The notes under the pieces: generated by a model
Database searches by the model: none
What the model saw: the letters and a program-made list of their open reading frames with translations, nothing else
Told to the model about the DNA's origin: nothing
From: a virus
Reading direction: 5' to 3' (one strand)
DNA: 64,000 bases
Virus record (IMG/VR): IMGVR_UViG_3300047095_000811
Span: 1 to 64,000 of that record
Translations under genes and position numbers: made by a program
Shown: in pieces, positions 44,146-64,000 of the stretch
Position numbering within the stretch: the first letter of the stretch is position 1
How the letters are laid out: each line of letters starts with the position of its first letter

Positions 44146-45711
44146 TCAGTCTTTTGTCAGCATGTACAGCGCTAGCCCACCTTCGCGGTGGATGCCACGG
44201 ATGAACCCGCCCTTGGCGTCAACGTAGTTGAGCGGGGAGTTCATCATCTTTGCGGCCTCCATGTTCGCCTCAGAGGAGAACAGGCCGATCACGCGCATCG
44301 TGTCACCGTCGAAGTCGCCGCCGAGACCCTTAAGGAAGGAAACGTTCGGGACGTAGGTGTCGATCCACTTGATCTTGTCATGGAGGATATTCCCCTTTCC
44401 GTCGGTCGGGAAGTAGGGGTAGTGGGTGAACCGCTTGTCGTTCATCCCGCCCTCTTCGGCAGGTCCGGTCATGTTGATCGTGTCTTCGGTGGTGAGCAGC
44501 TTGATCCGACACGCGATCACCGACTCAGGGCCGGTCACAGGGTAGCGAGTCGCGATGACGTGCTTGTTCTGAGTGACGTCCATGCACGCCTCGTAGAACA
44601 GGTCAGTCAGCGTGAACGGGCGATCTGGAAAGCGAACGTGCTTGAACTCTTTGACCAGCTTGGAATCGTTCCCGAGACCGTCGAGCCAGAAGTGCTGGCT
44701 TCGGATCATACGAGTCTTGTCCTTGATGTAGCCGTCAACCAACTTGGAGAGGCTAGTCGATGTCAGCTTACCGTAAGTGGTCTGCGGTAGGTCGTACCGC
44801 TTGTCGCCGTCAACGACGATGGAGGCAGCGTGTTCGTAGCCGTGGAAGAAGTCTTCCAGCCACTTGATCACGAACGGATAGAAGAGCGACAGCGCGAAGT
44901 GCAGCGGGACGCCGAATTCGTTGTACTTGACCTGCTGCAGGCCAGGATCGTCTGCCGAGAGCTTCGGGCAAGACAGAACGCCGATCGTGGAGTAGTCGAT
45001 GGATTTGCCCATAACCGCCTGACGGATGACGCCCTTCTTACCAGCAATCTTCTTGGTCAGCTCCGAGTAGATCTCAACTAGGATGCGCTGCACTGAGGAC
45101 TGCGTCAGGTACGAGTTGGTGAAGGTGATCGACTCGGACGTTGCAGCGTTGATCAGCTTGATGTAGTTGGCGTTGACGCCCTCGACCGAGATCTTCTTGG
45201 AGCCGGAGGCAGTGGAGAAGTTGATGTCCCGGTAGTACGCCGGGATGATCAGCCACTTGTCGATGAAGACCTCTTTCATGTCCAGCATGGAGAGTAGGTT
45301 CTCCTTCTTGGAGCGGGAGGCGTTCTCCTCGCCGATCTTGGTCCACTTGATCTTCTTCCAGTTCTTGATGAAGAACTCGATGCCGGTCTCTCCGTCTTCC
45401 GGCTTGTCTCCGGTGACGATCTTGCCGGAGACGTCTAGGCGGCAGAACTTCTCTCCGGAAATGACCTGCGGCAGGGCACGGAACATGCCGTACACGGTCA
45501 TGTAGACCAGCGGGTGGAAGAACTTACGACGGAGATCCACGAACCCGAAGTTGTACTTGCGAGCGTCGGAGCCGAACTTACCGAAGATCTTGGTCGAGAA
45601 GAGACCGTCATCGGAAGGGCCACCGTTGCTGTCCAGATAGAACCGGCTGGTCACTTGCTGACAGCCGTTCTTCTGGATGAATTGGTCGATGTCAAAAAGA
45701 TCGAGTTTCAT
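44146..45711 (-). CDS. Multisubunit RNA polymerase beta-prime fragment (N-terminal part)
   Basis: 521 residues. GLFSTKIFGKFGSDARKYNF and GFVDLRRKFFHPLVYMTVYG match the start of beta-prime, though the N-terminal zinc finger is missing. GKKGVIRQAVMGKSIDYSTI matches the region ahead of the active site, and LKGLGGDFDGDTMRVIGLFS holds the catalytic Mg-binding motif (NADFDGD in bacteria, GGDFDGD here with all three Asp). Ends soon after, at ALYMLTKD, so the C-terminal part must be encoded elsewhere. Together with the 494-residue beta piece this supports a phage-encoded RNA polymerase. Confidence 0.88.
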   Translation of the reverse strand: MKLDLFDIDQFIQKNGCQQVTSRFYLDSNGGPSDDGLFSTKIFGKFGSDARKYNFGFVDLRRKFFHPLVYMTVYGMFRALPQVISGEKFCRLDVSGKIVTGDKPEDGETGIEFFIKNWKKIKWTKIGEENASRSKKENLLSMLDMKEVFIDKWLIIPAYYRDINFSTASGSKKISVEGVNANYIKLINAATSESITFTNSYLTQSSVQRILVEIYSELTKKIAGKKGVIRQAVMGKSIDYSTIGVLSCPKLSADDPGLQQVKYNEFGVPLHFALSLFYPFVIKWLEDFFHGYEHAASIVVDGDKRYDLPQTTYGKLTSTSLSKLVDGYIKDKTRMIRSQHFWLDGLGNDSKLVKEFKHVRFPDRPFTLTDLFYEACMDVTQNKHVIATRYPVTGPESVIACRIKLLTTEDTINMTGPAEEGGMNDKRFTHYPYFPTDGKGNILHDKIKWIDTYVPNVSFLKGLGGDFDGDTMRVIGLFSSEANMEAAKMMNSPLNYVDAKGGFIRGIHREGGLALYMLTKD

Positions 45712-49191: not shown

Positions 49192-49239
49192 CGAATGGTC
49201 CCTCAACGCTAGTAAATTTGTGTTGTCACGTATCACTAG

Positions 49240-49254
49240 CACGGAAATGATATA
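49240..49254 (-). promoter_or_regulatory. Phage promoter motif (TATATCATTTCCGTG)
   Basis: Match to the 15-base consensus, 48 bases upstream of ATG 49191. A GCTAGT/ACTAGC repeat with a 21-base loop lies in the leader. Confidence 0.65.
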
Positions 49255-49275
49255 TCGATGAACCTGCCTTTGGGG

Positions 49276-50147: not shown

Positions 50148-50166
50148 TCGATTCTCCGGCTGAAGA

Positions 50167-50184
50167 GGGCGGGTTTCCCCACCC
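50167..50184 (-). terminator. Weak terminator after the polymerase N-half
   Basis: A 7-bp stem GGGTGGG/CCCGCCC (one U-G on the minus strand) with a GAAA loop is followed by TCTTCAG, a poor T-tract. Confidence 0.45.
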
Positions 50185-50189
50185 TGCTG

Positions 50190-51896
50190 TCAAGTTACAT
50201 AGTGCTCAAGGTCCGAGAGGATGTCGGAGACGTTGGGCAAGCCAAGAAGCTCTTTCCCGATCTTCACCGGGTCGGCTTCGGCCAGCATCGTCGGGATCTC
50301 GTCGTCCAGCTCCGGTCTCTCCTTGCACATGATCTTCCCGATCATGGTGTCTGCGTCGATGTTGAACGCCAAGATGATGGACGGATACAGGGACGCCAAG
50401 TCTTCGTCGATGACGTTCTCGTAAACTTTCGTGGATCTCTGCCCGTTGAGTTTGATCCCGACCGGGACCATCTTGCTCGGAAGGGCTACGAAAGCTCCAC
50501 GGAATTTCTTCTTTTCTCCGTGGTCCTTCTGCTTGTTGTGGTTGTTGGAGAGGATGTACCCTTCTTTCTCCAACAGCATGGCTGCGAAGTTCCGGATCGA
50601 CGTGGTCTTCGTCATCACCTTGGAGAAGCGAGTGGCGGTCATCAGCCCCATGTTGTACAGGAGGTCGATGTCCTTGTTCTTCTCCTCCAGCTGGTACAGG
50701 CGGAAGGAGTCGTAGAGCGAGTACTTCAGGAACCCCTCGAAGTCGATGTACATGGCATCTTGGATGTCTCCCTCGTACTCGAACTTGCTCTCGCCAATCT
50801 CCTCGAACAGGATCGCGTCAAGAGCATAGGACTCCCGCTTGCCCATCGTAGCCCGGATCGAGGCGAAGTTCTCCAGAAGACAGATGAATTGCGTGTACCC
50901 GGTGACGTCGAACACCGACTTGCGCTTCGACCAGTCCGTATTGAAGGTATCCGGGCGAATGTCCACCTGACGGTAAGGAAAGTCTTGATGACACATGATC
51001 CGAGTAACGTTCTCCTTTTCCTTCAGGAGACGGTTCATGAGCGTCGGCATATCGAACGAGGCGTTCCACGCACCGCAGAAGTCCGGCTTGTCTCGCTTCA
51101 CCAGCGCGAAGAACTTGGCGATCAGGGTCGCCTCGTCGTCGTAGATGTGGAAGCGGATGTCTTTCAGCTTCTTGTAGTTTGCTTTCCCGTTGTTCGTGTT
51201 GAACTCTTCGAGAAGTATCTGGACGTACTCTTCCTTGTGCTCTTCGAACGCTTCTAGGAACTCCGTCTGGCTATGGTTATTCGGGTTGCGGAGGATGAAC
51301 GAGTGCAGCGTCATCGTCGGCTCGTACATGTACGAGATCAGAGACACTGCGCATGGCGCAGCTTCTGGCTCCGGGAAGCCTTCGAATCCGTAGATGTCCA
51401 CCTCGATGTCAAAGAAAGCTTTGGCCAGAGGTATGTGCATCATCTGGCTTTTGTTCTTGTCTAGCCACTCCCGGATCTTGTAGTCTGCGAGGTGGATGTC
51501 TGTCAGATGAAGGTCGATGTCCTTCTCAAGCGTCCAGAGTTCTCTGTACTTGCCGTTCGAGACGCAGTCCTTGAAGAACTTCATCTGGTTGGAGACTTCA
51601 GCCATCTTGCGGTAGATGTCCTCGTAACGGACCGTGTACGCCTTGCAATCCTCCTTCTTGACGTAGTTGACCTCGCTACGGTCTTTCTTCTCTTGAGGCG
51701 TCTCACCTTGATGGAGGTGGTGAGTGCTGTAGAAGGTGTACTCCGGGTTTTCCTCGACAACAACCTCCTTGCGAATCGTGCCGTCGTCCATCGCGTGATT
51801 CTCGACGTACATGATCTTCGGAATGCTACGGTAGCCCCGGTCGTTCTCCGCCCGTAGGTAGATCACGTTGGACAGTGCTTTTCCTATTGTCTTCAT
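50190..51896 (-). CDS. B-family DNA polymerase, N-terminal half (exonuclease and palm motif A)
   Basis: 568 residues, ATG 51896 after AAGTGAGGAAAA. The 3'-5' exonuclease is complete: AKAFFDIEVD (Exo I, about 164-173), FCGAWNASFDMPTL (Exo II, about 283-296) and LKYSLYDSFRLYQ (Exo III). Palm motif A, NVIDEDLASLYPSIILAFN (about 486-504), ends this half, after which the protein stops 60 residues later at LSDLEHYVT. Motifs B and C are missing; they are in the gene at 61801. No split-intein sequence is seen, so the halves probably bind each other. Confidence 0.93.
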   Translation of the reverse strand: MKTIGKALSNVIYLRAENDRGYRSIPKIMYVENHAMDDGTIRKEVVVEENPEYTFYSTHHLHQGETPQEKKDRSEVNYVKKEDCKAYTVRYEDIYRKMAEVSNQMKFFKDCVSNGKYRELWTLEKDIDLHLTDIHLADYKIREWLDKNKSQMMHIPLAKAFFDIEVDIYGFEGFPEPEAAPCAVSLISYMYEPTMTLHSFILRNPNNHSQTEFLEAFEEHKEEYVQILLEEFNTNNGKANYKKLKDIRFHIYDDEATLIAKFFALVKRDKPDFCGAWNASFDMPTLMNRLLKEKENVTRIMCHQDFPYRQVDIRPDTFNTDWSKRKSVFDVTGYTQFICLLENFASIRATMGKRESYALDAILFEEIGESKFEYEGDIQDAMYIDFEGFLKYSLYDSFRLYQLEEKNKDIDLLYNMGLMTATRFSKVMTKTTSIRNFAAMLLEKEGYILSNNHNKQKDHGEKKKFRGAFVALPSKMVPVGIKLNGQRSTKVYENVIDEDLASLYPSIILAFNIDADTMIGKIMCKERPELDDEIPTMLAEADPVKIGKELLGLPNVSDILSDLEHYVT

Positions 51897-51902
51897 TTTT
51901 CC

Positions 51903-52586
51903 TCACTTAAACATCATGGAGTATTTCTCCAGTTGGTCTTTCATCTCGGCTTCCTGATCTGGCTTCAGATCGCAAGAGCCGCTCGGGGCGACGATCTTGT
52001 TCACTCTCGAATCTGCCGAGAAGCCTATTGTTTGCTGTATCTTTACCCCACTTCCGATCATCTTCTCAGCAATGGCACCGGTTTTCCCGGCGAAGTTGAC
52101 TGGCACGAGAACTCGCATCTTCGGGTTAGTGACCGGCCTCTCGATTGAGATGTGATCGGTGACAATGCGCTCCAGAACTCCTTTTCGTATCACAGGAAAA
52201 GCAAGGAGCATTATCCAGCATCCGTAGTAGACGAGCTTGTAGTGCTTCTCGTCCACTCGGTACAGAATCGTAGTCTCTTCTTCTTCGCACCTGGCTTCGT
52301 GGAAGGATACGGTCAGGTTCGCGTTTTCGACAAAGAAGGACGGGTCCACAACGAGCTCGTCTTTGTACTCGTCGAGCTCGTTCATTCTGACAAACTTCCC
52401 ATTTCTCGAAATCCCCAACGTGCCGTCTTCCATGACGACCATCGTGTTGTCTGGGAGAGAGTCCTGAGACAGTTTCCCTCGAATGACGCTACTGGAGCAA
52501 GATGCGTCTATGGACATCAGGTTCGCGTTGGAGAGACCGACGCTGAGAGACTGGTTTGAGAGGATTGGCGGTGTTAGAGTACTCAT
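51903..52586 (-). CDS. Hypothetical protein (227 aa)
   Basis: ATG 52586 in an ATGA-type overlap with the upstream gene. Beta-rich, with a hydrophobic patch (KLVYYGCWIMLLAFPVIRKG) and a Ser/Asn-rich N-terminus. No recognised motif. Located 6 bases before the polymerase half. Confidence 0.72.
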   Translation of the reverse strand: MSTLTPPILSNQSLSVGLSNANLMSIDASCSSSVIRGKLSQDSLPDNTMVVMEDGTLGISRNGKFVRMNELDEYKDELVVDPSFFVENANLTVSFHEARCEEEETTILYRVDEKHYKLVYYGCWIMLLAFPVIRKGVLERIVTDHISIERPVTNPKMRVLVPVNFAGKTGAIAEKMIGSGVKIQQTIGFSADSRVNKIVAPSGSCDLKPDQEAEMKDQLEKYSMMFK

Positions 52587-53395
52587 AAGAGAAGAATCAT
52601 CTTTCGCTTTTCATCATCGCTGACGAACTTGTTGTTGGAGTAAGCTTGCTTGAGCTTCTCGATGGCCTCCTGTGCGACGTTGCCAGTTTTTGACCTGTGA
52701 TACATGAACCTACGGCTTGCTGGCTGAGTCGAAGTCTTGACACTGACGAAGTGCTCGTAGATCCCGAAGAATTCTTCTGCGTCGAGGATCATGTACTGCA
52801 TGCACTTCAGGAGGGCATCGCTAGAGCTAAGTTGGCACTTCTCCAGAAGGTTCATCTCCAGAATCTTCTCGAAGACCTCGGTGTTCCGCTTTGCCTCTTT
52901 CCGGTCGGCGGTCTTGAACGCCAGAAAGAATCCCCGAATCGGGTTGGAGTCGAATGACCCTTCGTTCGGCTCCGGGTATTTGAACACGAGCTCTATTAAC
53001 CCTGCGTCGTAGATGAGCGCCGGACTGCCGATGGCGTCAACGATTCCACGTACAAAGCATCGTCTGTGGCTCATGTTTGGTAGCGTTTCTGACACTTCAT
53101 CGAACTCGCTCGTGTCAGATTCCGATATCAGCTTTGGGATCAGCACGTCTCGAACCTCTTTCAACGCAGCAGCTCTTGCGCTTGAGAAGTGGAACCCCTC
53201 TTTATTCTTACTCCAATCATAAATGCCAAGTCGCTTGGTTTCGCGATCAGCATACGACAGTGTGGTTTCTCTCACCTTCGGGGCCTTCTTGGTGCGCCCA
53301 GCGTGGTACTTCTCCAAAGACGTCATCTCGTTGGCAAAAGTGTGTCGATCGACGAGACGCTCAATGGTCTCCTTGGTTCTTGCGGATAGGCTCAT
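52583..53395 (-). CDS. Hypothetical protein (270 aa)
   Basis: Start at ATG 53395 after CCAGAGGAAACGCAA; the in-frame ATG at 53416 overlaps the promoter motif. Helical and basic, with SHRRCFVRGIVDAIGSPALI in the middle and an aromatic segment YMILDAEEFFGIYEHFVSVK. First gene of the polymerase operon. Function unknown. Confidence 0.75.
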   Translation of the reverse strand: MSLSARTKETIERLVDRHTFANEMTSLEKYHAGRTKKAPKVRETTLSYADRETKRLGIYDWSKNKEGFHFSSARAAALKEVRDVLIPKLISESDTSEFDEVSETLPNMSHRRCFVRGIVDAIGSPALIYDAGLIELVFKYPEPNEGSFDSNPIRGFFLAFKTADRKEAKRNTEVFEKILEMNLLEKCQLSSSDALLKCMQYMILDAEEFFGIYEHFVSVKTSTQPASRRFMYHRSKTGNVAQEAIEKLKQAYSNNKFVSDDEKRKMILLL

Positions 53396-53416
53396 TTGCG
53401 TTTCCTCTGGTTTCAA

Positions 53417-53431
53417 CAGACCAATAATATA
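53417..53431 (-). promoter_or_regulatory. Variant phage promoter motif (TATATTATTGGTCTG)
   Basis: Weaker match to the 15-base motif, 22 bases upstream of ATG 53395 in the divergent gap before the rightward capsid operon. Confidence 0.45.
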
Positions 53432-53466
53432 TTTTCAAAATCCGTTATAGGATTGAAAGGGCTCAC

Positions 53467-54264
53467 ATGAGTAGCACGGACGTAGTTAGATCCGACGAGC
53501 CAGTAAACGATCCGACCGAAATCACCCTGCGCGACATCCTCCAGCGAAACCAATTCAAGGAGAACGACGGCCTTCTCGACAGTGAAATCACTGAGCTTGA
53601 GAGTCTGTACTCGATGTCGAAGCAGATCCTCATGGACGAGGCTAACGGCGGCGCAAGCAGCAGTGCGCCAAAGAGGCTCGGCACGATCGACGCTGGTAAG
53701 AAGAAGAACTTCATGTTCATCGCAAACCAGACCGCTAACCTCATCAGCATCCGTAAGCTGAAGATGGAGCTGGTCCGGCAGAAGGCTGACCTGAAGCGAG
53801 ACGAGTTGGACCGCTCCATAAAGGCGCTAGTTCAGATCGCCAAAGAGGCGAAGTCTGGAGACGACGAGGGAAATCCGAAGCGCGTTCTCGACTTCCTCAT
53901 CAACAACCTCAACATCAACATTCCGATCGGACCTTCTCCAGTGCTCCGCAACGAGGCGGATGTGGATGCTCTTCTGGAGAGAGCCTTGGAGGACGCCGGT
54001 TTCGGATCCCCCAAAGAGAAGGTGGTCGATGCCGAGATCTTGGAGACGATCGAGACCGCCGGGGGAGACTCTCAGTACGTGCGGGAGTACAACGGCACCG
54101 ACGACATTCTGGTGTACAACCCGGATGGCGAGAAGGTGTACGTCGTCACCAAGGACTACGAGATCGTCCGAGAGCTGGCCGAAGACGAGTACGACGCCGA
54201 GATCCTCGACGACGGCACATTCGTAGACACTTTGACCAACACCATCATCGAAATACTGGAGTAA
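53467..54264 (+). CDS. Hypothetical protein at the start of the capsid operon (265 aa)
   Basis: ATG 53467 after TTGAAAGGGCTCAC. A helical body (ISIRKLKMELVRQKADLKRD; LDRSIKALVQIAKEAKSGDD) and an acidic, Asp/Glu-rich C-terminal third. Its place ahead of lysozyme and capsid would fit a small terminase or a prohead component, but no motif decides this. Three bases before the lysozyme start. Confidence 0.72.
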   Translation: MSSTDVVRSDEPVNDPTEITLRDILQRNQFKENDGLLDSEITELESLYSMSKQILMDEANGGASSSAPKRLGTIDAGKKKNFMFIANQTANLISIRKLKMELVRQKADLKRDELDRSIKALVQIAKEAKSGDDEGNPKRVLDFLINNLNINIPIGPSPVLRNEADVDALLERALEDAGFGSPKEKVVDAEILETIETAGGDSQYVREYNGTDDILVYNPDGEKVYVVTKDYEIVRELAEDEYDAEILDDGTFVDTLTNTIIEILE

Positions 54265-54267
54265 AAG

Positions 54268-54777
54268 ATGGCAAACGAAGAAATGAGAACTGGCGTTGGC
54301 GGCAAGTCCGTCATCACGCACTACGAACAAGGGCCGGAAGGCGGCTTTGCCAAGAAGCGGTACTACTGCTCCTCCGGCAAGCCGACCATCGGCTGGGGTC
54401 ACGTCATCCTCCCGGAAGAGAAAGCAGAGCTCTGGGACGCCACGATCGACGCAGCCAAGGCAGACTCGATCCTCGCCAAGGACCTCGTCAAATACGAGTC
54501 CTCGGTCAAGAAGCTGGTGAAGGTCAAGCTGACTCAGAACCAGTTCGACGCGCTGGTGAGCTTCTGCCTGAACGCAGGCGAAGGTTCTCTCGCTGCATCG
54601 ACCCTACTGAAGAAGGTTAACGCCGGTCTGCATGCGGAAGTCCCTGCTGAATTCCTCAAGTGGAAGTACGGCACCGACCCGAAGACCAAGCAGAAGATTG
54701 AGCTCAAGGGTCTCCTGTACCGCCGCCAGACCGAAGCCCTTCTGTACGACAAGGGTGAAGTGAAATTCTTCAACTAA
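54268..54777 (+). CDS. T4-type lysozyme / GH24 endolysin
   Basis: 169 residues. VITHYEQGPEGGFAKKRYYC followed by SSGKPTIGWGHV gives the GH24 catalytic Glu, then a Cys where T4 has Asp20, then Thr. Cys at that position is known in E-D/C-T lysozymes. LTQNQFDALVSFCLNAGEG is the conserved helix, and LLYRRQTEALLY the C-terminal one. No signal peptide, so it needs a holin or acts within the virion. Lies in the capsid operon. Confidence 0.92.
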   Translation: MANEEMRTGVGGKSVITHYEQGPEGGFAKKRYYCSSGKPTIGWGHVILPEEKAELWDATIDAAKADSILAKDLVKYESSVKKLVKVKLTQNQFDALVSFCLNAGEGSLAASTLLKKVNAGLHAEVPAEFLKWKYGTDPKTKQKIELKGLLYRRQTEALLYDKGEVKFFN

Positions 54778-54786
54778 GGACACGGC

Positions 54787-55434
54787 ATGGCAAACCCTCT
54801 CTTTCTAGACGAGTCTGCCCTGTACCAGTTCTTCCTCAGTGAAGACGCGGTATTGATGGAAGCAGACGACGAAGACACCGAGGATCCGCAGGGATCCGAC
54901 AAAGAAAAAGACGCTCCGGACGCCGGAGCAGACGGTAAAGACACCGAGGCAGACGCGAGCGATGCTTCTGAGACCGACGATGCTCCCGCTGAGAGCGACG
55001 ACGAGTCCGAAGAATCTAGCGACGACTCCTCTGACGACGAGAGCGAACCCCCGGCTCCTAAGAAGAAGCCCTCTCGGTTTGCAATCAAGGTAGACGATAC
55101 GCCGCAGAATAGAGCGTTCATGTTCGAGAAGTTTGAAGCTCTCAACACGATGCACCAGAATCTGCGCCAGTTCATCGAGAACATCAGAGATCGGGCGAAC
55201 CTCTCTCCGGCGCAAGAAAAGATCTTCAGCCAGCTGGAGGTCAAGATCGGCTCGAACATCGACCTCCTGAAGGAAATGGTCGATGGTGAGATGCTTCTTG
55301 AGATGGAAATGTCCGACATCTTCGGCCTGTATAAAATTTACTTCAACGACGCTAGCAGCGTCAACAAAGTGATCAGGTCAATCATGAACACTGGACAAAA
55401 GGACGGTAAGAAGCGCCAGCCCAAACGTGGCTGA
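54787..55434 (+). CDS. Acidic prohead or scaffold-like protein (215 aa)
   Basis: ATG 54787 after AAGGACACGGC. The N-terminus MANPLFLDESALYQFFLSED repeats the F-L-x-E pattern. Residues about 25-88 are nearly all Asp/Glu/Ser/Ala. The C-terminal half is helical (NTMHQNLRQFIENIRDRANL), with a basic end (GKKRQPKRG). A short, acidic then helical protein just before the capsid gene fits a scaffold, or an internal protein trimmed by a prohead protease. Confidence 0.75.
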   Translation: MANPLFLDESALYQFFLSEDAVLMEADDEDTEDPQGSDKEKDAPDAGADGKDTEADASDASETDDAPAESDDESEESSDDSSDDESEPPAPKKKPSRFAIKVDDTPQNRAFMFEKFEALNTMHQNLRQFIENIRDRANLSPAQEKIFSQLEVKIGSNIDLLKEMVDGEMLLEMEMSDIFGLYKIYFNDASSVNKVIRSIMNTGQKDGKKRQPKRG

Positions 55435-55467
55435 AACCTACTGTCATGAAGTAACATCCGATTAGAG

Positions 55468-55488
55468 AGCTCCCTTCGGAGGGGAGCT
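55468..55488 (+). promoter_or_regulatory. Leader hairpin before the capsid gene
   Basis: AGCTCCC/GGGAGCT stem with a TTCGGAG loop, 40 bases upstream of the capsid start, no T-tract. A stability or attenuation element for a high-level mRNA is possible. Confidence 0.5.
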
Positions 55489-55527
55489 AAAGTCAATCAT
55501 TCGACTCTTTTCAAAGGAACCATAACT

Positions 55528-57111
55528 ATGGCTATCTCCTACGATACCATTCATCAGAGCTCGGTCGGCGTTCGCATTTCCGGCGCTCTGGAAGGTCTGC
55601 AGTCCATCAACGAGGCTTTCCAACAAGAAGGCATCAATGTTCTGAACGAAGGCTTCAGCGAAGTCGCCACCAACTCTCACTTCTTCTCCGACTACGTCGC
55701 GAAGCTGTCCGAGGGCATGGATCCCGAAATCGCTGGTCAGTTCCAGGCCATCGCCAACAACACCCGCACCCAGATCCTGCAAGAAAGCTCGATCTCCGGC
55801 ATCAACCCGATCACCGCTCTGTCCCTGCCGATGCTGCGCGTGGCGTTCCCGAAGACCGCCATCCGTGAAGGCTTCCCGACCGAGCCGGTTCTGCAGCCGA
55901 AGTTCAAGGTGACTTGGCTGAAGCCGTACGTGATCGACTCCGCCAACAACCAGAAGGTCTACATGCCCCTCGGCATCAAGACCAAGAAGTCCCTGTTCAA
56001 GCTGAAGTCCCTGTCCGAGTCCGCAATCGCCGTTGGCGCTTCCGGCGCTGCTGGCGTTGACCTGCTGACCCCGGCTGGCGGCAACTCCGCTCTGGGCGAC
56101 GAGATCGACCCGAACTTCCGCATCGTGGCTGTGACCTTCAAGGCTCTGGACGCTGCTGGTGCCAACGCCGAGAACGTGACTGTCGAGTGCGACCTGCCGC
56201 TGGACACCAACATCGACGTCGTCGAAGGCTCCGTCAAAGGCGCTCACAGCGACAATACCGTCAACACCGTCCGCGTGTTCGCCAAGCTGAACCGCCGCGA
56301 AGGCGAGATGGACGTCGTTGGCCTGGGCCGCGAAGTGGTTTCCATCAAGATCCAGGGCTACATCAGCTCTGAATCCAACAACCGCTCCACCCAAGTCGGC
56401 TTCGACATCACCAGCGACGAGACCGTCATCGGTACCGGCGCTCCGATCGAGTCCCCGATCAACATCCAGCAGATGACCGACACGATGGCGATGTACAACA
56501 TCGACTCCACCGTTCGCACTCTGGAGATCATGTCCACCGCTCTGGCTCAATCCACTGACCTCGAAGGCATCGACTTCTTGGCCAAGAAGTGGTCCCTCGG
56601 CCTGAAGCTGGAGACCTCGTTCGACGTCAACCCGCCGTCCAACTTCACCCTCGGCAACACCGCATGGCGTGAAGAGATGAAGATCAAGATCGACAATCTG
56701 GTGACCCGTCTGATGCAGTCGACGAACATCACCGCTGGTCAGGCCGTGATCTTCGGCAACCCGCTCGACACCCAAGTGCTGCACAACGTTCGTTGGATGT
56801 ACTCCGGCGAAGAGCAGGTGAACGGCGTGAACGTGGAATACCGCGTCGGCTCCTACACCTCCGGTGTGACCACCTACAAGGTGCTGTCCAGCTTCAACTT
56901 CGACCAAGGCGACATGTACGTGTGCTTCCTGCCGTCCGCTCCGGATCAGGCAACCCTGAAGTACTACCCGTACAGCTTCAACGTCGTTCGTGGTACCGCT
57001 TCCCCGAACCATCCCTACACTCCGGCTGTCATGATGCTCAAGCGTCATGTCTTCAAGGAGTACAGCCCGATGATCGGCAAGCTGAAGATCCTGAACAACA
57101 ACGGCCAGTAA
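55528..57111 (+). CDS. Major capsid protein
   Basis: 527 residues. ATG 55528 after TTCAAAGGAACCATAACT. Strongly biased codons (CTG, GGC, AAG, CGC) as expected for the most abundant virion protein. Helical N-terminus with possible processing sites, then LSLPMLRVAFPKTAIREGFP and FKVTWLKPYVIDSANNQKVY, and a long beta-rich part with LPLDTNIDVVEGSV. The end has YYPYSFNVVRGTASPNHPYT. It resembles the HK97-fold capsids of large myoviruses. Followed by two strong terminators in a row. Confidence 0.88.
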   Translation: MAISYDTIHQSSVGVRISGALEGLQSINEAFQQEGINVLNEGFSEVATNSHFFSDYVAKLSEGMDPEIAGQFQAIANNTRTQILQESSISGINPITALSLPMLRVAFPKTAIREGFPTEPVLQPKFKVTWLKPYVIDSANNQKVYMPLGIKTKKSLFKLKSLSESAIAVGASGAAGVDLLTPAGGNSALGDEIDPNFRIVAVTFKALDAAGANAENVTVECDLPLDTNIDVVEGSVKGAHSDNTVNTVRVFAKLNRREGEMDVVGLGREVVSIKIQGYISSESNNRSTQVGFDITSDETVIGTGAPIESPINIQQMTDTMAMYNIDSTVRTLEIMSTALAQSTDLEGIDFLAKKWSLGLKLETSFDVNPPSNFTLGNTAWREEMKIKIDNLVTRLMQSTNITAGQAVIFGNPLDTQVLHNVRWMYSGEEQVNGVNVEYRVGSYTSGVTTYKVLSSFNFDQGDMYVCFLPSAPDQATLKYYPYSFNVVRGTASPNHPYTPAVMMLKRHVFKEYSPMIGKLKILNNNGQ

Positions 57112-57123
57112 GACGTTGTGAGA

Positions 57124-57160
57124 ACTCCCCATACCTGCAAGGGTATGGGGGTTTTCTTTG
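57124..57160 (+). terminator. Intrinsic terminator after the capsid gene
   Basis: Stem CTCCCCATACC/GGTATGGGGG with loop TGCAAG is followed by GTTTTCTTTG. Almost the same as the hairpin at 37894. Confidence 0.92.
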
Positions 57161-57180
57161 TTCCGAGAAGAAAAATAGAG

Positions 57181-57210
57181 CGCCACTAGGGAATTCCCTA
57201 GTGGCGTCTT
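57181..57210 (+). terminator. Second hairpin (perfect palindrome) after the capsid gene
   Basis: A 26-base perfect palindrome, CGCCACTAGGGAA and its complement (57181-57206), is followed by TCTTTGG. A backup terminator, or a target for a symmetric DNA-binding protein. Confidence 0.75.
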
Positions 57211-57411
57211 TGGCGATTCAGTTTGCATATTGGTGCGATCTACTGGAGGAGACCGTTTCCTTGCCCCGGAGGTACGAGAGCAAGGCGAAAGGAGACACGA
57301 TTAAACTTCCCGACCCTGATATGCAAGCATAAGGTCTCGGTCTTGCTCGCGGAAACTATCAAACGCGAGCAACACATCGGCATATGAACCCACACAAGCT
57401 TCCCAGCCGTG
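57211..57411. other. Gap with hairpin and a short non-convincing frame
   Basis: From 57112 to 57411 no gene is accepted. A 43-codon rightward frame (GTG 57201 to stop 57330) lacks a ribosome site. A 9-bp stem TTGCTCGCG/CGCGAGCAA (57343-57351 with 57364-57372) has no T-tract on either side. Confidence 0.45.
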
Positions 57412-57840
57412 CTACTCAGTTGTTCGCAGCAGCTCTGCTCTTGCCTTCATCCGCTTCATGAACTCTCTAGCAAACTTGTCCGATTTTGCCGGAGCCGAAC
57501 AACCGACCGCCTCGGAGAAGAGTGGTAGAGATCGGTTGATTTTTTGGGTTTTAGCCTCGGCCACGTCTCTCCCGTAGACTTTGGCCTTACCAGCGAAATG
57601 GTACCCATATGCCAGCCGATTTCTGCCGAGCTTGACCGAGCTGAACTCCCCGTCGGTGAGAAACCGGCTCATGTACTCGTTGAAGGTCATCGGATTGTAA
57701 TTCGGCTCGATGTCGTCTCGGACAGCGTAGAAGATTTCTCTCAGGTCGTCCACGGTGAAAAACACCCCCATGTTGTGACCTAGGAATTTCTTGATCTCTC
57801 TGGTCAAGACAAAGAACCCAGACAATCGATCATTGCTCAT
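57412..57840 (-). CDS. Hypothetical protein (142 aa)
   Basis: ATG 57840 after ATGGGAGAAGCAC. Begins MSNDRLSGFFVLTREIKKFL, then a possible winged-helix stretch (FFTVDDLREIFYAVRDDIEP; YMSRFLTDGEFSSVKLGRNR). A basic C-terminus follows (FAREFMKRMKARAELLR). Could bind DNA, on pattern alone. Lies just downstream of the vWA gene and its terminator. Confidence 0.72.
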   Translation of the reverse strand: MSNDRLSGFFVLTREIKKFLGHNMGVFFTVDDLREIFYAVRDDIEPNYNPMTFNEYMSRFLTDGEFSSVKLGRNRLAYGYHFAGKAKVYGRDVAEAKTQKINRSLPLFSEAVGCSAPAKSDKFAREFMKRMKARAELLRTTE

Positions 57841-57853
57841 GTGCTTCTCCCAT

Positions 57854-57887
57854 AAAAAAAGATCGGAGGGCTAACGCTCTCCGATCT
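57854..57887 (-). terminator. Intrinsic terminator after the large vWA gene
   Basis: A 9-bp stem AGATCGGAG/CTCCGATCT is followed on the minus strand by TTTTTTATG. Confidence 0.9.
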
Positions 57888-57902
57888 TGTCATGCAGCTT
57901 CT

Positions 57903-60236
57903 TTACACCTTGACGATTTCCTCGCCGAGGTTGAAGGTGGCGAGAACATCCTCGCCGTCAGCTTGGATGGTCACGGTGTTCTCATCCAGAGAAGAGAACT
58001 CCTTGAACCATGTCTGACCGACGACGATGGTGTACGACACGCGGGCCATCAGACCCTGCAGTGCGCGGACGCCGTTGATGAACTCCTTGCGCTTCGCATC
58101 CAGCCACTCGCGCAGCTTCGCCTCGTCCTTGGCTTCTTCCGTCGCCATGAACTCGGTGTACTCCTTGTAAGGAGCTACGAAGCCCTTCTCGCGACCAGTC
58201 AGAGCCTTACCGGCGTCGATCTTGGCGATCACGTCGGCGGTCTTCGGCAGGGACTTCAGACCCTTCAGCTCGACCGACAGCTCCTTGGTGGTGTACTGGT
58301 CGGTGGACGGAGACACGGCACGCTTCGGATTGAACCCGGCGTCGGTCACGCCCATCTCGATCAGGTAAGCCACCTGCTCGGCGCTGTACTTCTCGACCAG
58401 ACCGGCAGACTTCGCACGGGCGAACTTCTGATCGTAGAAGTAGTTGAACACGGCCTGACCGCACTTCTTCAGGTACAGGTCGTACTGCGAGCGAGCGGTG
58501 TCCACGGCGGAGACTTCGCCGACCATCTTGCGGTTGATCAGCGGGATATCCATCAGGTTCAGCTCGAAGACCTTACCGGCTTCCCAGTCGATGGACTCGT
58601 CCAGAATCTTCTCGGCTACCAGCTTGTCGAAGGTTGCCTTGGAGAAGGACACCGGCAGAGTCTTGGTGTTGATGATCCCGTCCCGGATAATGTTGTAGTT
58701 GCGATAGACTTTGGACTCGACTTCGGTCAGGCCCAGGTCGTTCTTCGGCAGCTTCACGGTACCCTTGCGCTCGACCCGGATCGACACGTTGGGACGGGTC
58801 GAGTTCAGCACGATCGCGTGGAACGGAACGTCACCGGCATCGCCTTCGACGAACTTGGCAGCTTGCTTGGTCTCCAGCAGTCCATCGATGTAGTCGTTCA
58901 CTGCCTTGATGTCTTTCGCATTGCGAGCCTTGGCGCTGCGGGCAGCGACTTCGGCCTTCTCTTCTTCGCTCAGAAGCTCCATCGCGTCTTCCGTTGCGCG
59001 GGAGATGCGGCTGTAGTTCTCGAAGAACTTCTCGCTGAGGATCAGCTTGGCATCTTCGTCCTTGATCAGGTCGTCGAGCAGCTGCACCACAGTGTAGGCA
59101 TCTTCCGCCGGGACCATCGTCGGATCATAGCCTTCCTTCATGCGCTCGGAGTTGTTGAAGACGCACTTCAGCACTTCGGCTTGGAAGGAGGTGTAGTGCT
59201 GCTTGCCGAAGCAGTTCGCGAACATCTTGATCAGACGGACGTCGCCAATGGCGCGGAGGAAGCCGTAGCCCTCGTTGCTCATCATGCGCTGCGCCAGCAC
59301 GAACATGCCAGCGTACAGACCGGGGATCACTGCGCTGGTAGTGCGCTTGCCTTCTTCGAACTTCTTGGCGAAGATGTCTGCTGCAGACTCCTTCTTGCGA
59401 CCGCTTTGGACGGTGGAGAGGAACCAGACGGTCTTCGTGGTGGAGGGAACCGCCACCTTGCCGTCAACCACAGCGTACGCCACGACTGCGTCGTCGGTGA
59501 TGGTATAAGCCACCTTACCGATGCTCTCGGTCGGGATTTCCACCTCGATGCGCTTTGCCATAGCGGCGCTTGGCTGGTTGGTGAACTCGGCCTCGATGAT
59601 CGGGACGTAGTCCTGGAACTTCTCGGCGAAGATCAAGTTACCGCCAGCGGCTTCGGCCATCTTGGTGAGGAGCGGACGGTTGCAGTACCAGCCGTACTCG
59701 ACGATGGTGAAGGTTGCCATCTTCATTGCGGCTTCTTCAGTTGCTTTCAGGATCTGGTCGACGGCCCATTCGTTGTCGCCACCGTCAGTCATGAAGCTCA
59801 GAGAGAAGACGTTGTCGGAGCCGAGCGTGGAGATGATGCGGTCCACGAGACGGCTGGCTTCTTCCATCGGCTCCTTGAAGCCGGTCAGACCGACGGTCGT
59901 CAGGTAGCGATCGATGGCAGCGTTGACCTGCTGGAGGCTGGTCGCGCTCTTCATCGAGTACGCTTCGACGACGGTGCCGAACTGGCCGCGACCGCTGAAC
60001 CAGATGATCGACAGAGTGTCGTTCTCGGCGATGGAGGTAGCGATCTTGTTCTTCAGCTCTTGACGCAGGCGGTCCAGACTGCCGTACATGGAGCCGGAGC
60101 AGTCGATGGCGAAGATGTGGTTGACCTTGGGAGGAGCGACCACTACCGGCTCCTTACCTTCCTTCTCCTTGGGGATGGTGACGGAGATCAGGTTCAGTTC
60201 TTCGGAGACGGGGTAGGAAACAACAGTGTTTGCCAT
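57903..60236 (-). CDS. Large vWA-domain protein (777 aa)
   Basis: ATG 60236 after GTAAAGGAAGAATACTC. Residues about 35-225 are a vWA fold: VNHIFAIDCSGSMYGSLDRL gives DxSGS, LTGFKEPM the Thr, and LSFMTDGGDNEW the late Asp, so the metal site is complete. The next 550 residues are of unknown type, with mixed strands and helices (EEKAEVAARSAKARNAKDIK; VSIRVERKGTVKLPKNDLGL). No signal peptide. Distinct from the smaller vWA protein at 3716. A phage-encoded scaffold or remodelling factor is possible; no MoxR ATPase is seen nearby. Confidence 0.88.
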   Translation of the reverse strand: MANTVVSYPVSEELNLISVTIPKEKEGKEPVVVAPPKVNHIFAIDCSGSMYGSLDRLRQELKNKIATSIAENDTLSIIWFSGRGQFGTVVEAYSMKSATSLQQVNAAIDRYLTTVGLTGFKEPMEEASRLVDRIISTLGSDNVFSLSFMTDGGDNEWAVDQILKATEEAAMKMATFTIVEYGWYCNRPLLTKMAEAAGGNLIFAEKFQDYVPIIEAEFTNQPSAAMAKRIEVEIPTESIGKVAYTITDDAVVAYAVVDGKVAVPSTTKTVWFLSTVQSGRKKESAADIFAKKFEEGKRTTSAVIPGLYAGMFVLAQRMMSNEGYGFLRAIGDVRLIKMFANCFGKQHYTSFQAEVLKCVFNNSERMKEGYDPTMVPAEDAYTVVQLLDDLIKDEDAKLILSEKFFENYSRISRATEDAMELLSEEEKAEVAARSAKARNAKDIKAVNDYIDGLLETKQAAKFVEGDAGDVPFHAIVLNSTRPNVSIRVERKGTVKLPKNDLGLTEVESKVYRNYNIIRDGIINTKTLPVSFSKATFDKLVAEKILDESIDWEAGKVFELNLMDIPLINRKMVGEVSAVDTARSQYDLYLKKCGQAVFNYFYDQKFARAKSAGLVEKYSAEQVAYLIEMGVTDAGFNPKRAVSPSTDQYTTKELSVELKGLKSLPKTADVIAKIDAGKALTGREKGFVAPYKEYTEFMATEEAKDEAKLREWLDAKRKEFINGVRALQGLMARVSYTIVVGQTWFKEFSSLDENTVTIQADGEDVLATFNLGEEIVKV

Positions 60237-60280
60237 GAGTATTCTTCCTTTACGGTGAGTTACGGTTCTTCCACTAGAAC

Positions 60281-60295
60281 CACTCGAATTATATA
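60281..60295 (-). promoter_or_regulatory. Phage promoter motif (TATATAATTCGAGTG)
   Basis: Match to the 15-base motif, 45 bases before ATG 60236, with a GGTTCT/AGAACC leader hairpin (60264-60269 with 60276-60281). Confidence 0.6.
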
Positions 60296-60326
60296 TCAGC
60301 CATGGCTACTTTGCAGTTGGAGCATA

Positions 60327-60360
60327 GAAAACCCTCCATCCCTTTTGAGGATGGAGGGTC
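60327..60360 (-). terminator. Intrinsic terminator after the 130-residue gene
   Basis: An 11-bp stem ACCCTCCATCC/GGATGGAGGGT with loop CTTTTGA region is followed on the minus strand by TTTTCTATG. Confidence 0.9.
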
Positions 60361-60395
60361 AATGCCGTAGGAACGGCGGTCCCTAAGGTAGGGGA

Positions 60396-60788
60396 TTACT
60401 TCTTCGGCGCGGCACCGATGCCAGCCATGAGCTGACGAGCGCGAGCGATGGCCTTGGAGCCATACTTGCGGTAGATCACCTCGCGGATTTGCAGGCGGAT
60501 GCCGTTGAACTTCGCGTACTTGGTGTACAGCGGGTCCAGCTTGGCCTTTGCCAGCAGCAGGGCTTGGCGGTGAGCCAGATTGTTGGTCTTGGCCTGACGG
60601 TTCAGACGAACGATGTTCTGCTGCTCTTGCAGGACTTCTTCGGAAGCTTCCGGATCCAGAGCGTTCATGGCAGCAGCCATGCGACGCATCGCCAGCTCTT
60701 CGTCGAGCTGGAGAGCCTCGCTCTCGGAACCGACTTCGGCTTCATGGGATTCCTGCTCTTCGCCCAACAGTTGATTGATGAGAGACAT
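60396..60788 (-). CDS. Small helical protein, probably virion-associated (130 aa)
   Basis: ATG 60788 after TTAAAGGAAACCATC. Begins with an acidic helical half (MSLINQLLGEEQESHEAEVG) and ends in a basic half (YRKYGSKAIARARQLMAGIG). Likely helical hairpin. Preceded by a GAAGAGC-rich leader and followed by its own terminator. Family not recognised. Confidence 0.72.
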   Translation of the reverse strand: MSLINQLLGEEQESHEAEVGSESEALQLDEELAMRRMAAAMNALDPEASEEVLQEQQNIVRLNRQAKTNNLAHRQALLLAKAKLDPLYTKYAKFNGIRLQIREVIYRKYGSKAIARARQLMAGIGAAPKK

Positions 60789-60892
60789 GATGGTTTCCTT
60801 TAACAGAATGATTGGTGGCTCGTGTCGAGCTCCGAAAAACTCGATACGATTGAGCGTAAAGCTCTTCTAATCAGTTGTTACGGTGGATAAAA

Positions 60893-60900
60893 TATAAATA
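60893..60900 (+). promoter_or_regulatory. T4-type late promoter octamer (TATAAATA)
   Basis: Exact TATAAATA, 95 bases upstream of the gene at 60988, close to the distance seen for the copy at 34558. Confidence 0.4.
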
Positions 60901-60932
60901 GACGAATGGACCCTCAAAGAATTTGTCAATGA

Positions 60933-60947
60933 TATATAATGATAGTG
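60933..60947 (+). promoter_or_regulatory. Phage promoter motif on the plus strand (TATATAATGATAGTG)
   Basis: The only clear rightward copy of the 15-base motif, 41 bases before ATG 60988. A leader hairpin TGTAGT/ACTACA (60946-60951 with 60956-60961) overlaps its end. Confidence 0.65.
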
Positions 60948-60987
60948 TAGTAGAAACTACATTCTCTCTTACCACCAAGGAAGAACC

Positions 60988-61749
60988 ATGCAGAAAAAGG
61001 TACTGAGCATCAACGATCTTCTGGCGGCTAAGCGCCTCAAGACCCAGCAGCAACAACAGCAAAAGGAAGCTCAGGAAAAGCAGACTTCCGAAGCACCCAA
61101 GCCGCGAATCCGCCGCCTCGTCGAAGCTCTCGACGAGAGCGAAGCGAACACGCCGAAGTTCGACGTGACCAACGTGAAGCACTTCCGCTTCCGAGAGCAC
61201 AATGAGAACGGGTCTGCGATCAGCAACCGTTTCGCAATCACGGTCTCCTACACCAACCCTCAAATCGACATCATCGAAGGGACTACCTACGTCGATGTCG
61301 GGGTAGCAATTTGCTTCGGCGACAATTTCGACCGCCGCGTCGGTGCCGCGATCGCCAACGAACGTGCGCTGAACCGCTGCAGCCCCGAACTCCGGACTCG
61401 CATCTATCTCCGGGAGGTTGACCCCGAGAGTCAGTATGCGAACTACACCTTACTCAACTGGCGCGAGCTCCTGCTGGATCCGGACGGTCGCCGCCGCATC
61501 AACGTCGCCATCCGGGAAATTCTCTGGAAATACGTTGAAAAGAGGTTCCTGTCTGAAAGCATGCGCGACATGATCGACCAAGGATTCCTCGAACTGATCG
61601 GCGACAACCCTTCGGAAGCGAAGGCTGCGCGAAACGATAGCGAAAGCGAGCAATCTCCCCGCCAGCCGAAAGTCCGTGTACACCGCATCAACTCGCTGGA
61701 GGACTTCGCGAAGTTCATGACCTCCGTGATTGGCCGCGAGATCAAGTAA
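60988..61749 (+). CDS. Hypothetical protein upstream of the polymerase C-half (253 aa)
   Basis: ATG 60988 after ACCAAGGAAGAACC. Poly-Gln near the N-terminus (LKTQQQQQQKEAQEKQTSEA), then a beta-rich domain (FAITVSYTNPQIDIIEGTTY; VDVGVAICFGDNFDRRVGAA) and a helical C-terminus (RINVAIREILWKYVEKRFL). No family recognised. Ends at a strong terminator placed just before the polymerase gene. Confidence 0.75.
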   Translation: MQKKVLSINDLLAAKRLKTQQQQQQKEAQEKQTSEAPKPRIRRLVEALDESEANTPKFDVTNVKHFRFREHNENGSAISNRFAITVSYTNPQIDIIEGTTYVDVGVAICFGDNFDRRVGAAIANERALNRCSPELRTRIYLREVDPESQYANYTLLNWRELLLDPDGRRRINVAIREILWKYVEKRFLSESMRDMIDQGFLELIGDNPSEAKAARNDSESEQSPRQPKVRVHRINSLEDFAKFMTSVIGREIK

Positions 61750-61752
61750 AAC

Positions 61753-61789
61753 GTGTGGGTTGCATCCGTGCAACCCACCTTTCTTTTTT
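61753..61789 (+). terminator. Intrinsic terminator before the polymerase C-half
   Basis: Perfect 10-bp stem GTGGGTTGCA/TGCAACCCAC with a TCCG loop is followed by CTTTCTTTTTTC. Only 12 bases separate it from the next start, so the downstream gene depends on read-through or on a promoter in this gap. Confidence 0.92.
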
Positions 61790-61800
61790 CAGGAGACGAT

Positions 61801-63756
61801 ATGTCATACTCACAGCTCGGCGAATTCTACGTTCGATACTTCACGGCGCTCTTCAGCCGCCTCGGAAAGATCGTGGACCTCGACGAAGATGCAATGCAGA
61901 AGATCGTCGAGAAGGTCATGGCGAAAGTCAAACCGATCGACCTGCGCATCGAGAATAACTACAAGAACAGCGAGATCGACGTAGACTCCGAGAAGCTTCT
62001 TAACCTGTACTACTCCAAGAAGCCGTCGATCTCCGGGTACGGCGTCCTCTTCAAGCAGAACGCAGTCAACGCGCCGGGTAAAATTCTTGAGTACTTGATC
62101 AAACAGCGGAAAGTTGTGAAGAAGGAGATGTTTGCTCACGAGAAAGATGCAGACCGATCCGTCTACAACCAGCTTGACGTCGAGCAGAAGGTGATCAAGG
62201 TTCTAGCAAACGCATTCTACGGCGCGTTCGGCCAGAGCAGCTTCCACTTCTACAACCCGGTGCTTGGCCCCTCGGTGACGTATTCCGGTCAGAATATCAC
62301 ATTGAGTGCGATCCTCGGATTCGAAGCCTTCATGACCGGCAATTTCGAGCTGTTCAGCTTCGACGAGCTAATGATCTACATCGAGAATATCGAGAGCGAG
62401 GAGTTGCATGAGATCTCGATCATGGACTCCCCGGTGCAGACCACCACCGTGTTCCAGTGGCTCAAGGAACACTGCAAGTTCGACTTCACCGAGGAACACG
62501 AGATGTACCTCGAACAGATCCTCGAACGGATGAACGAGTACCAGCTCGAAAGGCTGTACCTGAAGAACAACCTCGAACAGCTCCTAGCGACCTCGACGAT
62601 CACAGAGATCTTCGGACAGTGCTTTGACCAGGACTTCCTCGACTCAGCCCACCCGACCGATCGCAACAAGGAAGCTATCGAGACTCTCGATGAGTACTTC
62701 CGCTATTTCTTGTCTTACCCCTACCAGTGGAACGACAAGTTCGAACGCATCGACAACATGCAGCGCAGGTGCGTCATCATTTCCGACACCGACTCGACGT
62801 TCCTCAACATCAATCCTGTGGTGGAATGGTACGAAGACAAGATCAACGGAGGTGAGCGCCTCGACAAGATCGGTCGCATGGTGATCTGCAACGTCATGGT
62901 CTACTCCATCACCAAGTACATCGAGCAGGTGTTCTGGGAGCTGACGAAGAACATGAACGTTCCGGAAGAGCGCCGGAAGCTGATCAACATGAAGTCAGAG
63001 TTCAACTACTCCCGGATCATCCTGACGAAGAACAAGAAGCAGTACGCTGGCATAATCGTTCTTCAAGAGGGCAACCTGCTGGAGAAGCCGAAGTTCGATA
63101 TCAAGGGCCTCGACATCAAGAAGGTAAAGACCCCGAAGATCGCCCGGAAGTACTTCGGAGACGTTCTGGAGAAGGACATGCTGCTGTGCCCGGAGATCGA
63201 TCCGATGAAGGTGTTCATGCGCTTCATGGACTTCGAGCGTCAAATTCACGACTCCCTGATGAACGGAGAGACGAACTTCGCCAAACCCGGAAAGTTCTCC
63301 AACGCAGCCGGTTACAAGAATCCGGGAACGATCCAAGCTTACCGTGGTGTCAAGCTCTGGAACGTGATGTACCCGAAGAAGACTATCCCTGACTTCTCCA
63401 ACGTGAACCTGCTGAAGCTCCGCAAGATCACCAGAGAGAACTACAAGGAGATCTTCTCCGAGGAATGGCACGAGAAGATCGAAGAGTACTTCGACATGCC
63501 GATCGAGATCAGCGACAAGGAAGCCAAGAAGAAGGCCGAAGCCGCTGGCAAGACGACGTTCGGAGACTACGGCATCGACGTGGTCGCTGTTCCGAAGGGA
63601 GAAGAGTCGATCCCCGAAATCTTCCGGGAGCTGATCGACGTCACAAGCATTACTGACGCCAACATGAAGAACGGCAACATTCTCCTTGAGAGCATCGGCT
63701 TCAAGGTGATCAAGTCGCTCAGTCAGAACACAATCACCAACATAGTGGAGATATAG
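61801..63756 (+). CDS. B-family DNA polymerase, C-terminal half (palm motifs B and C, thumb)
   Basis: 651 residues; start ATG 61801 after TTTCAGGAGACGAT, and the frame to 61753 lies inside the terminator. Motif B KVIKVLANAFYGAFGQSSFH (about 128-147) holds K-x3-N-x2-YG. Motif C RRCVIISDTDSTFLNINPVV (about 322-341) holds the DTDS catalytic Asp pair. A thumb-like helical region follows (AAGYKNPGTIQAYRGVKLWN). The exonuclease and motif A are in the gene at 50190 on the other strand. The first 60 residues have no polymerase motif and may help the halves join. Confidence 0.92.
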   Translation: MSYSQLGEFYVRYFTALFSRLGKIVDLDEDAMQKIVEKVMAKVKPIDLRIENNYKNSEIDVDSEKLLNLYYSKKPSISGYGVLFKQNAVNAPGKILEYLIKQRKVVKKEMFAHEKDADRSVYNQLDVEQKVIKVLANAFYGAFGQSSFHFYNPVLGPSVTYSGQNITLSAILGFEAFMTGNFELFSFDELMIYIENIESEELHEISIMDSPVQTTTVFQWLKEHCKFDFTEEHEMYLEQILERMNEYQLERLYLKNNLEQLLATSTITEIFGQCFDQDFLDSAHPTDRNKEAIETLDEYFRYFLSYPYQWNDKFERIDNMQRRCVIISDTDSTFLNINPVVEWYEDKINGGERLDKIGRMVICNVMVYSITKYIEQVFWELTKNMNVPEERRKLINMKSEFNYSRIILTKNKKQYAGIIVLQEGNLLEKPKFDIKGLDIKKVKTPKIARKYFGDVLEKDMLLCPEIDPMKVFMRFMDFERQIHDSLMNGETNFAKPGKFSNAAGYKNPGTIQAYRGVKLWNVMYPKKTIPDFSNVNLLKLRKITRENYKEIFSEEWHEKIEEYFDMPIEISDKEAKKKAEAAGKTTFGDYGIDVVAVPKGEESIPEIFRELIDVTSITDANMKNGNILLESIGFKVIKSLSQNTITNIVEI

Positions 63757-63759
63757 CCT

Positions 63760-64000
63760 ATGGCGTATTTTGCAGTACTGGCGGTGACCGACAATAGCCG
63801 GGAGAACAACGTCGTCACTGACGTTGTCTTCAACTCCGTCGGTTCCTACAAGAGTGCGCTGGACTTCCACGCACAGCTCTACGAGAAGATGAACGGGATG
63901 TCCAGTAACCCGTTTTCCAAGAAGCATCTTGACATGATTCGAAGGGGCGGAGTCGACATCCACGCCCTTCTCATCGACCCCGACATCTTCCACATCTGCC
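63760..64000 (+). CDS. Start of a hypothetical gene cut by the window edge
   Basis: ATG 63760 three bases after the polymerase stop, with GGAG 12 bases upstream. It encodes at least 80 residues (MAYFAVLAVTDNSRENNVVT, later VDIHALLIDPDIFHIC) and stays open at the edge. No family recognised. Confidence 0.7.
   Translation, partial: MAYFAVLAVTDNSRENNVVTDVVFNSVGSYKSALDFHAQLYEKMNGMSSNPFSKKHLDMIRRGGVDIHALLIDPDIFHIC

What the first reader, a model, noticed from the sequence alone, without database searches (positions are those of the whole stretch)
50190..63756. DNA polymerase split between palm motifs A and B, on opposite strands 10 kb apart
Seen: exonuclease and motif A end in the leftward gene at 50190; motifs B (NAFYGAFG) and C (DTDS) start in the rightward gene at 61801. 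No intein-like ends. Known: split gp43 exists in some T4-like phages as adjacent genes. Inference: the halves were separated by rearrangement and must assemble in trans, and their different orientation gives separate timing.
Basis: partly seen in the sequence, partly recalled or inferred. Interest (0 to 1): 0.75.

Follow-up and report, generated by a model that had tools for sequence, protein, structure and literature searches.

The report
Two-gene split phage DNA polymerase
A giant phage carries its DNA-copying enzyme as two separate genes far apart on opposite strands, which is real but already the rule in its whole group of giant phages, so this is a new example of a known oddity rather than a new discovery.

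Summary
A 568-aa gene (50190-51896, minus) holds the exonuclease and palm motif A of a T4-type B-family DNA polymerase; a 651-aa gene (61801-63756, plus) holds motifs B and C, KxY and thumb. Each is a good match to a known half-polymerase family (phrog_3011, phrog_2927). The nearest named relative, Yersinia phage phiR1-37, has the same two genes, also divergent, with two of the same neighbours between them. Among 60 records with matches to both families, 54 carry them in separate frames, on the same or opposite strands in about equal number; the other six are single-frame enzymes, T4-type by score. Orientation changed about ten times on the tree. Published papers already call this a "split subunit DNA polymerase" (phiKZ, OBP, SPN3US), and knock-down of either half hurts phiKZ. 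So the split is inherited, not a local rearrangement; the 10 kb gap here holds a head-protein gene block. Assembly in trans is very likely, because the catalytic aspartates lie on different chains. "Separate timing" is not supported: in AR9 both halves belong to one expression class. New member of a known kind. Less appreciated in print: the conserved split puts motif A on the "exonuclease" subunit.

The parts
50190..51896 (-). N-half of the split B-family DNA polymerase: N-terminal domain, 3'-5' exonuclease, palm motif A (aa 499), conserved C-terminal tail (about aa 533-567); 66.3 kDa
61801..63756 (+). C-half: extra head (about aa 1-66), fingers with motif B (aa 133), helical insert (about aa 187-304), motif C DTDS (aa 329-332), KKxY (aa 412-415), thumb; 76.0 kDa
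53467..54264 (+). conserved neighbour between the halves; similar to phiR1-37 sequence lying in g169 (39% over 119 aa), function unknown
   Evidence: for the gene positions
55528..57111 (+). major head protein (phrog_20655), part of the gene block that widens the gap between the halves here
60396..60788 (-). small virion protein on the C-half side; similar to phiR1-37 g168 (58% over 71 aa) and to the AR9 gene beside its C-half (36% over 72 aa)
44146..45711 (-). subunit of a phage multisubunit RNA polymerase (phrog_2986), marker of the phage group

Best explanation
The two genes encode the two obligate subunits of the phage's replicative B-family DNA polymerase, an inherited two-subunit replicase of the phiKZ/AR9/phiR1-37 group of jumbo phages. 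Shown by sequence: the cut lies in the palm, after motif A and before the fingers, at RB69 gp43 residues of roughly 434-452, so one catalytic aspartate is on the exonuclease subunit and the aspartates of motif C are on the fingers/thumb subunit. Inferred: the proteins find each other after translation, the N-half tail and the C-half head (both extra relative to fused T4-type enzymes) help hold them together, and the heterodimer works like a T4-type polymerase with proofreading. Orientation and distance are incidental, as in the relatives.
For: Both halves match dedicated half-length families: phrog_3011 (576 positions) 35-564 and phrog_2927 (710 positions). Catalytic residues intact: exonuclease D163, E165, D282, D396 and Y392 invariant in 16 of 16 N-halves; K133, N137, Y140, G141, D329, D331, K412, K413, Y415 invariant in 36 of 36 C-halves. 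Models: N-half aligns to RB69 gp43 1-386 (4khs_A Z 27.4, rmsd 2.9, 357 aligned), with its piece of palm (aa 455-533) mostly at pLDDT under 50 when folded alone; C-half (mean pLDDT 89.5) aligns to RB69 452-898 (4khn_B Z 15.5, rmsd 4.4, 376 aligned). Neither half repeats the other's palm motif: motif A in 20 of 23 distinct N-halves (the other three open frames end before it), motif C in 40 of 40 C-halves and no convincing motif A there. Separate frames in 20 of 21 named phages and 34 of 39 IMG/VR records with matches to both. In phiKZ, antisense knock-down of gene 050 (C-half) and 082 (N-half) both score as hits (PMC12571901, passage with table seen; gene identities).
Against: No complex was predicted or purified; contact between the halves is inference. 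AlphaFold gives low confidence for the N-half's palm piece and only moderate confidence for its tail, so the interface is a guess. PMC7824862 (passage seen) describes the group-1 polymerase as one protein lacking a fused exonuclease, with an exonuclease encoded elsewhere that may associate, i.e. it does not speak of a shared active site. PMC12571901 offers another idea for phiKZ082 (holding down prophage Pf4). The record is incomplete, so another polymerase elsewhere is not excluded.
Confidence: 0.9

Rival explanations
1. Recent local break: a once single gp43 gene was cut and one half inverted in this lineage, with the two orientations now serving separate timing.
For: The genes are on opposite strands with about 10 kb, including virion genes, between them. 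Fused enzymes exist in T4-type phages such as Aeh1 (single 924-aa frame).
Against: All close relatives are already split and divergent (window, G011, G012, phiR1-37, G013 form one starred set); the block N, 53467-type gene, 60396-type gene, C is the mirror of phiR1-37 and G013. AR9 expresses both halves in one class.
Confidence: 0.04
2. The two genes are joined by trans-splicing (split intron or split intein) into one polypeptide.
For: A split PolB with a split intein is published for phage MIJ3 (PMC6892783, passages seen), and introns do sit inside polymerase halves of relatives: group I in the phiR1-37 C-half, group II in the LPJP1 N-half.
Against: No intron family in window 49000-64000 even at E <= 1, no intein family; the N-half ends in a tail conserved among relatives, with a stop.
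Confidence: 0.03
3. The N-half is mainly a stand-alone proofreading exonuclease and the C-half a polymerase that works without it.
For: PMC7824862 words it so for group-1 phages.
Against: The C-half lacks motif A, which supplies a metal-binding aspartate in B-family enzymes (established knowledge); that motif is kept in the N-half, also in phiKZ-type phages (DIVSTYP in SL2, DLTSSYP in JM-2012).
Confidence: 0.05

Closest known systems
Split polymerase of Yersinia phage phiR1-37 (g170 = N-half; g167 and g164 = C-half)
   Same: 39% identity in both halves; opposite strands, divergent; two shared neighbour genes between the halves
   Different: Gap 1.8 kb instead of 10 kb; its C-half is interrupted by a group I intron
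Split polymerase of Bacillus phages AR9/PBS1 (AR9 gp131 and gp151 in the record)
   Same: Same cut point, 33-35% identity; annotated as exonuclease plus 'partial catalytic domain' and catalytic domain
   Different: Both on one strand, 15 kb apart
Split-subunit polymerase of phiKZ (PHIKZ050, PHIKZ082), OBP and SPN3US (gp18, gp44)
   Same: Same two families and same cut; the split is in print
   Different: Much more diverged; 27-35 kb apart in these three
T4-type gp43, fused (RB69, Aeh1) or split as adjacent genes 43A/43B (the latter recalled, not seen in a call)
   Same: Same fold and motifs
   Different: One chain, or adjacent genes; lacks the C-half head and the long helical insert between motifs B and C

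Membership tests
Split-subunit PolB of phiKZ-related jumbo phages | Two open frames, cut between palm motif A and the fingers | tested here: met
Split-subunit PolB of phiKZ-related jumbo phages | Match to the two half families phrog_3011 and phrog_2927 | tested here: met
   E 6.1e-68 and 9e-95
Split-subunit PolB of phiKZ-related jumbo phages | Same genome encodes split multisubunit RNA polymerase | tested here: met
   phrog_2986 at 44146-45711, E 6.6e-99; phrog_2943 'polymerase' at 42147-43631, E 5.9e-56. Other subunits not looked for
Split-subunit PolB of phiKZ-related jumbo phages | The halves form one active enzyme | not testable with these tools
   No complex prediction or assay available
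B-family DNA polymerase (PolB) | Exonuclease residues, motifs A, B, C and KxY | tested here: met
   over the two chains together
B-family DNA polymerase (PolB) | RB69 gp43-like fold | tested here: met
   Z 27.4 and 15.5
T4-type split gp43 (43A/43B) | Halves in adjacent genes on one strand | tested here: not met
   Opposite strands, 9.9 kb apart
Split-intein PolB (as in MIJ3) | Intein domains at the break | tested here: not met
   No intein family at E <= 0.01
Trans-spliced gene | Group I or II intron halves at the break | tested here: not met
   No Rfam match at E <= 1 in 49000-64000

The most novel reading that the evidence does not exclude
The B-family replicase of this whole branch of jumbo phages was cut once, before the phiKZ and AR9/phiR1-37 lines parted, and has stayed an obligate heterodimer ever since, with the catalytic metal site built from two chains (motif A on the exonuclease subunit), while the genes were shuffled freely around the genome. 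It would be the DNA-polymerase counterpart of the split RNA polymerase subunits of the same phages.
Probability: 0.6. Interest if true: 0.45.

Novelty: new member of a known kind. Interest (0 to 1): 0.2.

Why it matters
It adds an environmental phage to a known group and gives a clean map of the cut: nearly all sampled members break at the same place, so the two chains must rebuild the palm active site. That makes a simple biochemical test possible (does either chain polymerise alone?) and corrects the tendency to call the N-half merely an exonuclease. As a single finding it is ordinary for its phage group.

Tried and rejected
Recent local rearrangement: rejected. Assembly error: rejected because G011 shows the same order independently. 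Intein or intron joining: no sign. A second complete polymerase: none in the 136,853-base record for PF00136, PF00476, PF07733; the record is probably incomplete. Idea that the co-oriented pairs always run C before N (as in G029, where the N-half start follows the C-half stop after 11 bases): rejected as a rule, since among the IMG/VR records 11 are N-first and 7 C-first. The search for related loci with single window proteins found nothing; with the N-half alignment A3 it mostly returned T4-type fused enzymes. Promoter-like sites in 45-64 kb were no more than chance (7 against 7.6 expected), so timing could not be read from the window. Papers not held: PMC3201878, PMC4889955, PMC13189113. A literature search for a purified PBS2-induced polymerase found nothing in the library; I recall, without having seen it, a 1978 report (Hitzeman and Price) of a PBS2-induced polymerase with chains of about 78, 69 and 27 kDa, which would fit the AR9 halves of 75.1 and 65.2 kDa.

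Full report
What was checked. The minus-strand gene 50190-51896 (568 aa) matches PF03104 (exonuclease) and only the first part of PF00136 (positions 3-91). The plus-strand gene (ORF 61753-63756; likely start ATG 61801) matches PF00136 from position 121 on and PF20286 'Divergent Family B DNA polymerase'. Both also match PHROG families that are themselves half-length: phrog_3011, 576 positions, E 6.1e-68, and phrog_2927, 710 positions, E 9e-95. That alone says that the split is a standing feature of known phages.

Where the cut lies. The N-half model (16 sequences, mean pLDDT 79.0) aligns to RB69 gp43 residues 1-386 (4khs_A Z 27.4, rmsd 2.9, 357 aligned); its piece of palm, aa 455-533, is mostly under pLDDT 50. 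The C-half model (36 sequences, mean pLDDT 89.5) aligns to RB69 from model residue about 63-74 (RB69 435-453) to RB69 about 898 (4khn_B Z 15.5, rmsd 4.4, 376 aligned). Against Aeh1, a fused T4-type enzyme of one 924-aa frame, the profile of N-halves ends at residue 428 and that of C-halves starts at 513; by eye the fingers helix of the C-half begins near Aeh1 466. The N-half carries a tail after motif A whose pattern (about G.LP...DIL) recurs, with changes, in AR9, S6, SL2 and JM-2012. The C-half carries a head of about 66 residues without a counterpart in the RB69 alignments and about 120 residues of helices between motifs B and C; PMC7824862 already describes a long helical insert in group-1 polymerases (passage seen).

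Active site on two chains. Motif A was found in 20 of 23 distinct N-halves; in the three others (L184, L037, L039) the open frame ends before it. Motif C (D-T/S-D) was found in 40 of 40 C-halves. A loose motif A pattern also hit five of the 40 C-halves (Fnp1, PBS1, G041, G025, G024); these hits lie far from any palm position or look unlike the motif by eye, and I take them as chance. The strict motif B pattern was met in 27 of 40 and missed the 11 phiKZ-type C-halves, G028 and G030 (all). Since B-family enzymes need the aspartates of both motifs (established knowledge), neither chain should polymerise alone.

How common. phrog_3011 was sought in 10, 22 and 39 records and phrog_2927 in 32 and 39; together 71 distinct records. 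60 had usable matches to both families: 54 in separate frames and six in one frame (Aeh1, G007, G008, G009, G010, G048), which look T4-type by score and were not placed on a tree. Not counted: G001 and G006 (N-half only), eight records with C-half only (G017, G020, G021, G026, G034, G035, G037, G038), and G039 (only a fragment of the N-half). The records were chosen because they hold one of the halves, so this is not a random sample; many IMG/VR records are fragments and several are near-copies (for example G002/G049, G022/G023, G015/G016). Of 20 named jumbo phages, 11 have the halves on opposite strands and 9 on the same; of 34 IMG/VR records including the window, 16 opposite and 18 same. 'Convergent' and 'divergent' depend on the arc taken in a circular map. 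The only directly adjacent pair is G029, C-half first, N-half ATG 11 bases after the C-half stop codon.

History. A quick C-half tree of 40 rows puts the window in starred sets with G011, then G012, then phiR1-37 and G013, all five divergent. The three-way arrangement label needs 11 changes on the tree (same versus opposite: 9; starred branches force at least 7 for 'same'); shuffled labels need more, so arrangement is inherited in part but flips repeatedly. Fnp1 and G029 have long branches and unsure places. Local order supports inheritance: phiR1-37 reads C(-), g168(+), g169(-), N(+), and the window is its mirror, N(-), 53467(+), 60396(-), C(+), with lysozyme, major head protein (phrog_20655) and a VWA protein (phrog_2426) lying in between.

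What is in print. PMC5105663 speaks of the phiKZ 'split subunit DNA polymerase'; [quoted passage not shown] 2012 (the 2012 paper itself not seen). AR9's two parts are named in PMC5312081 and placed among continuously expressed genes. PMC12571901 lists phiKZ 050 and 082, both 'DNA polymerase', as hits of an antisense screen; 050 is the C-half and 082 the N-half. PMC7824862 instead describes a polymerase without fused exonuclease plus a separate exonuclease protein. For each of these papers I saw only the passages returned by 'find'. I found no report of a purified two-chain enzyme in the searches, which cover open-licence papers only.

Verdict. The part worth a test is the shared active site: motif A sits on the subunit that is often labelled as exonuclease.

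Noticed in passing
L003:10611-11010 (phiR1-37); L008:3971-6446 (LPJP1): Polymerase halves of relatives are interrupted by self-splicing introns: group I in the phiR1-37 C-half (annotated as several small genes), group II in the LPJP1 N-half.
   Followed up: partly
L216:9947-13794: In G029 the two halves are adjacent in the order C then N, with a ribosome-binding site between, the reverse of the order in a fused enzyme.
   Followed up: partly
G042 (IMGVR_UViG_3300025000_000053), 14083-15918 and 241941-244165: Two different C-half copies in one 250-kb record, the second in two frames; could be a second polymerase, an intron or a mixed assembly.
   Followed up: no
G003:50818-54165, G004:43541-46604, G043, G047: C-half seems further divided just before motif B, with the head and first fingers helix in a separate small frame; intron or third gene not settled.
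   Followed up: no
window 46896-47705 (-): Protein weakly similar (22% over 214 aa) to AR9 gp150, annotated 5'(3')-deoxyribonucleotidase, and to phiR1-37 sequence (33%); might point to uracil-containing DNA as in these phages.
   Followed up: partly
window 61755-61778: Terminator-like hairpin directly in front of the C-half start, so its transcript must read through it or start inside it.
   Followed up: no
window 15027-16700 (-): Nicotinamide phosphoribosyl transferase (phrog_448, E 2.5e-191): phage NAD metabolism gene.
   Followed up: no
window 57903-60236 (-): 777-aa protein with a weak von Willebrand A match, strong match to phrog_2426 of unknown function.
   Followed up: no
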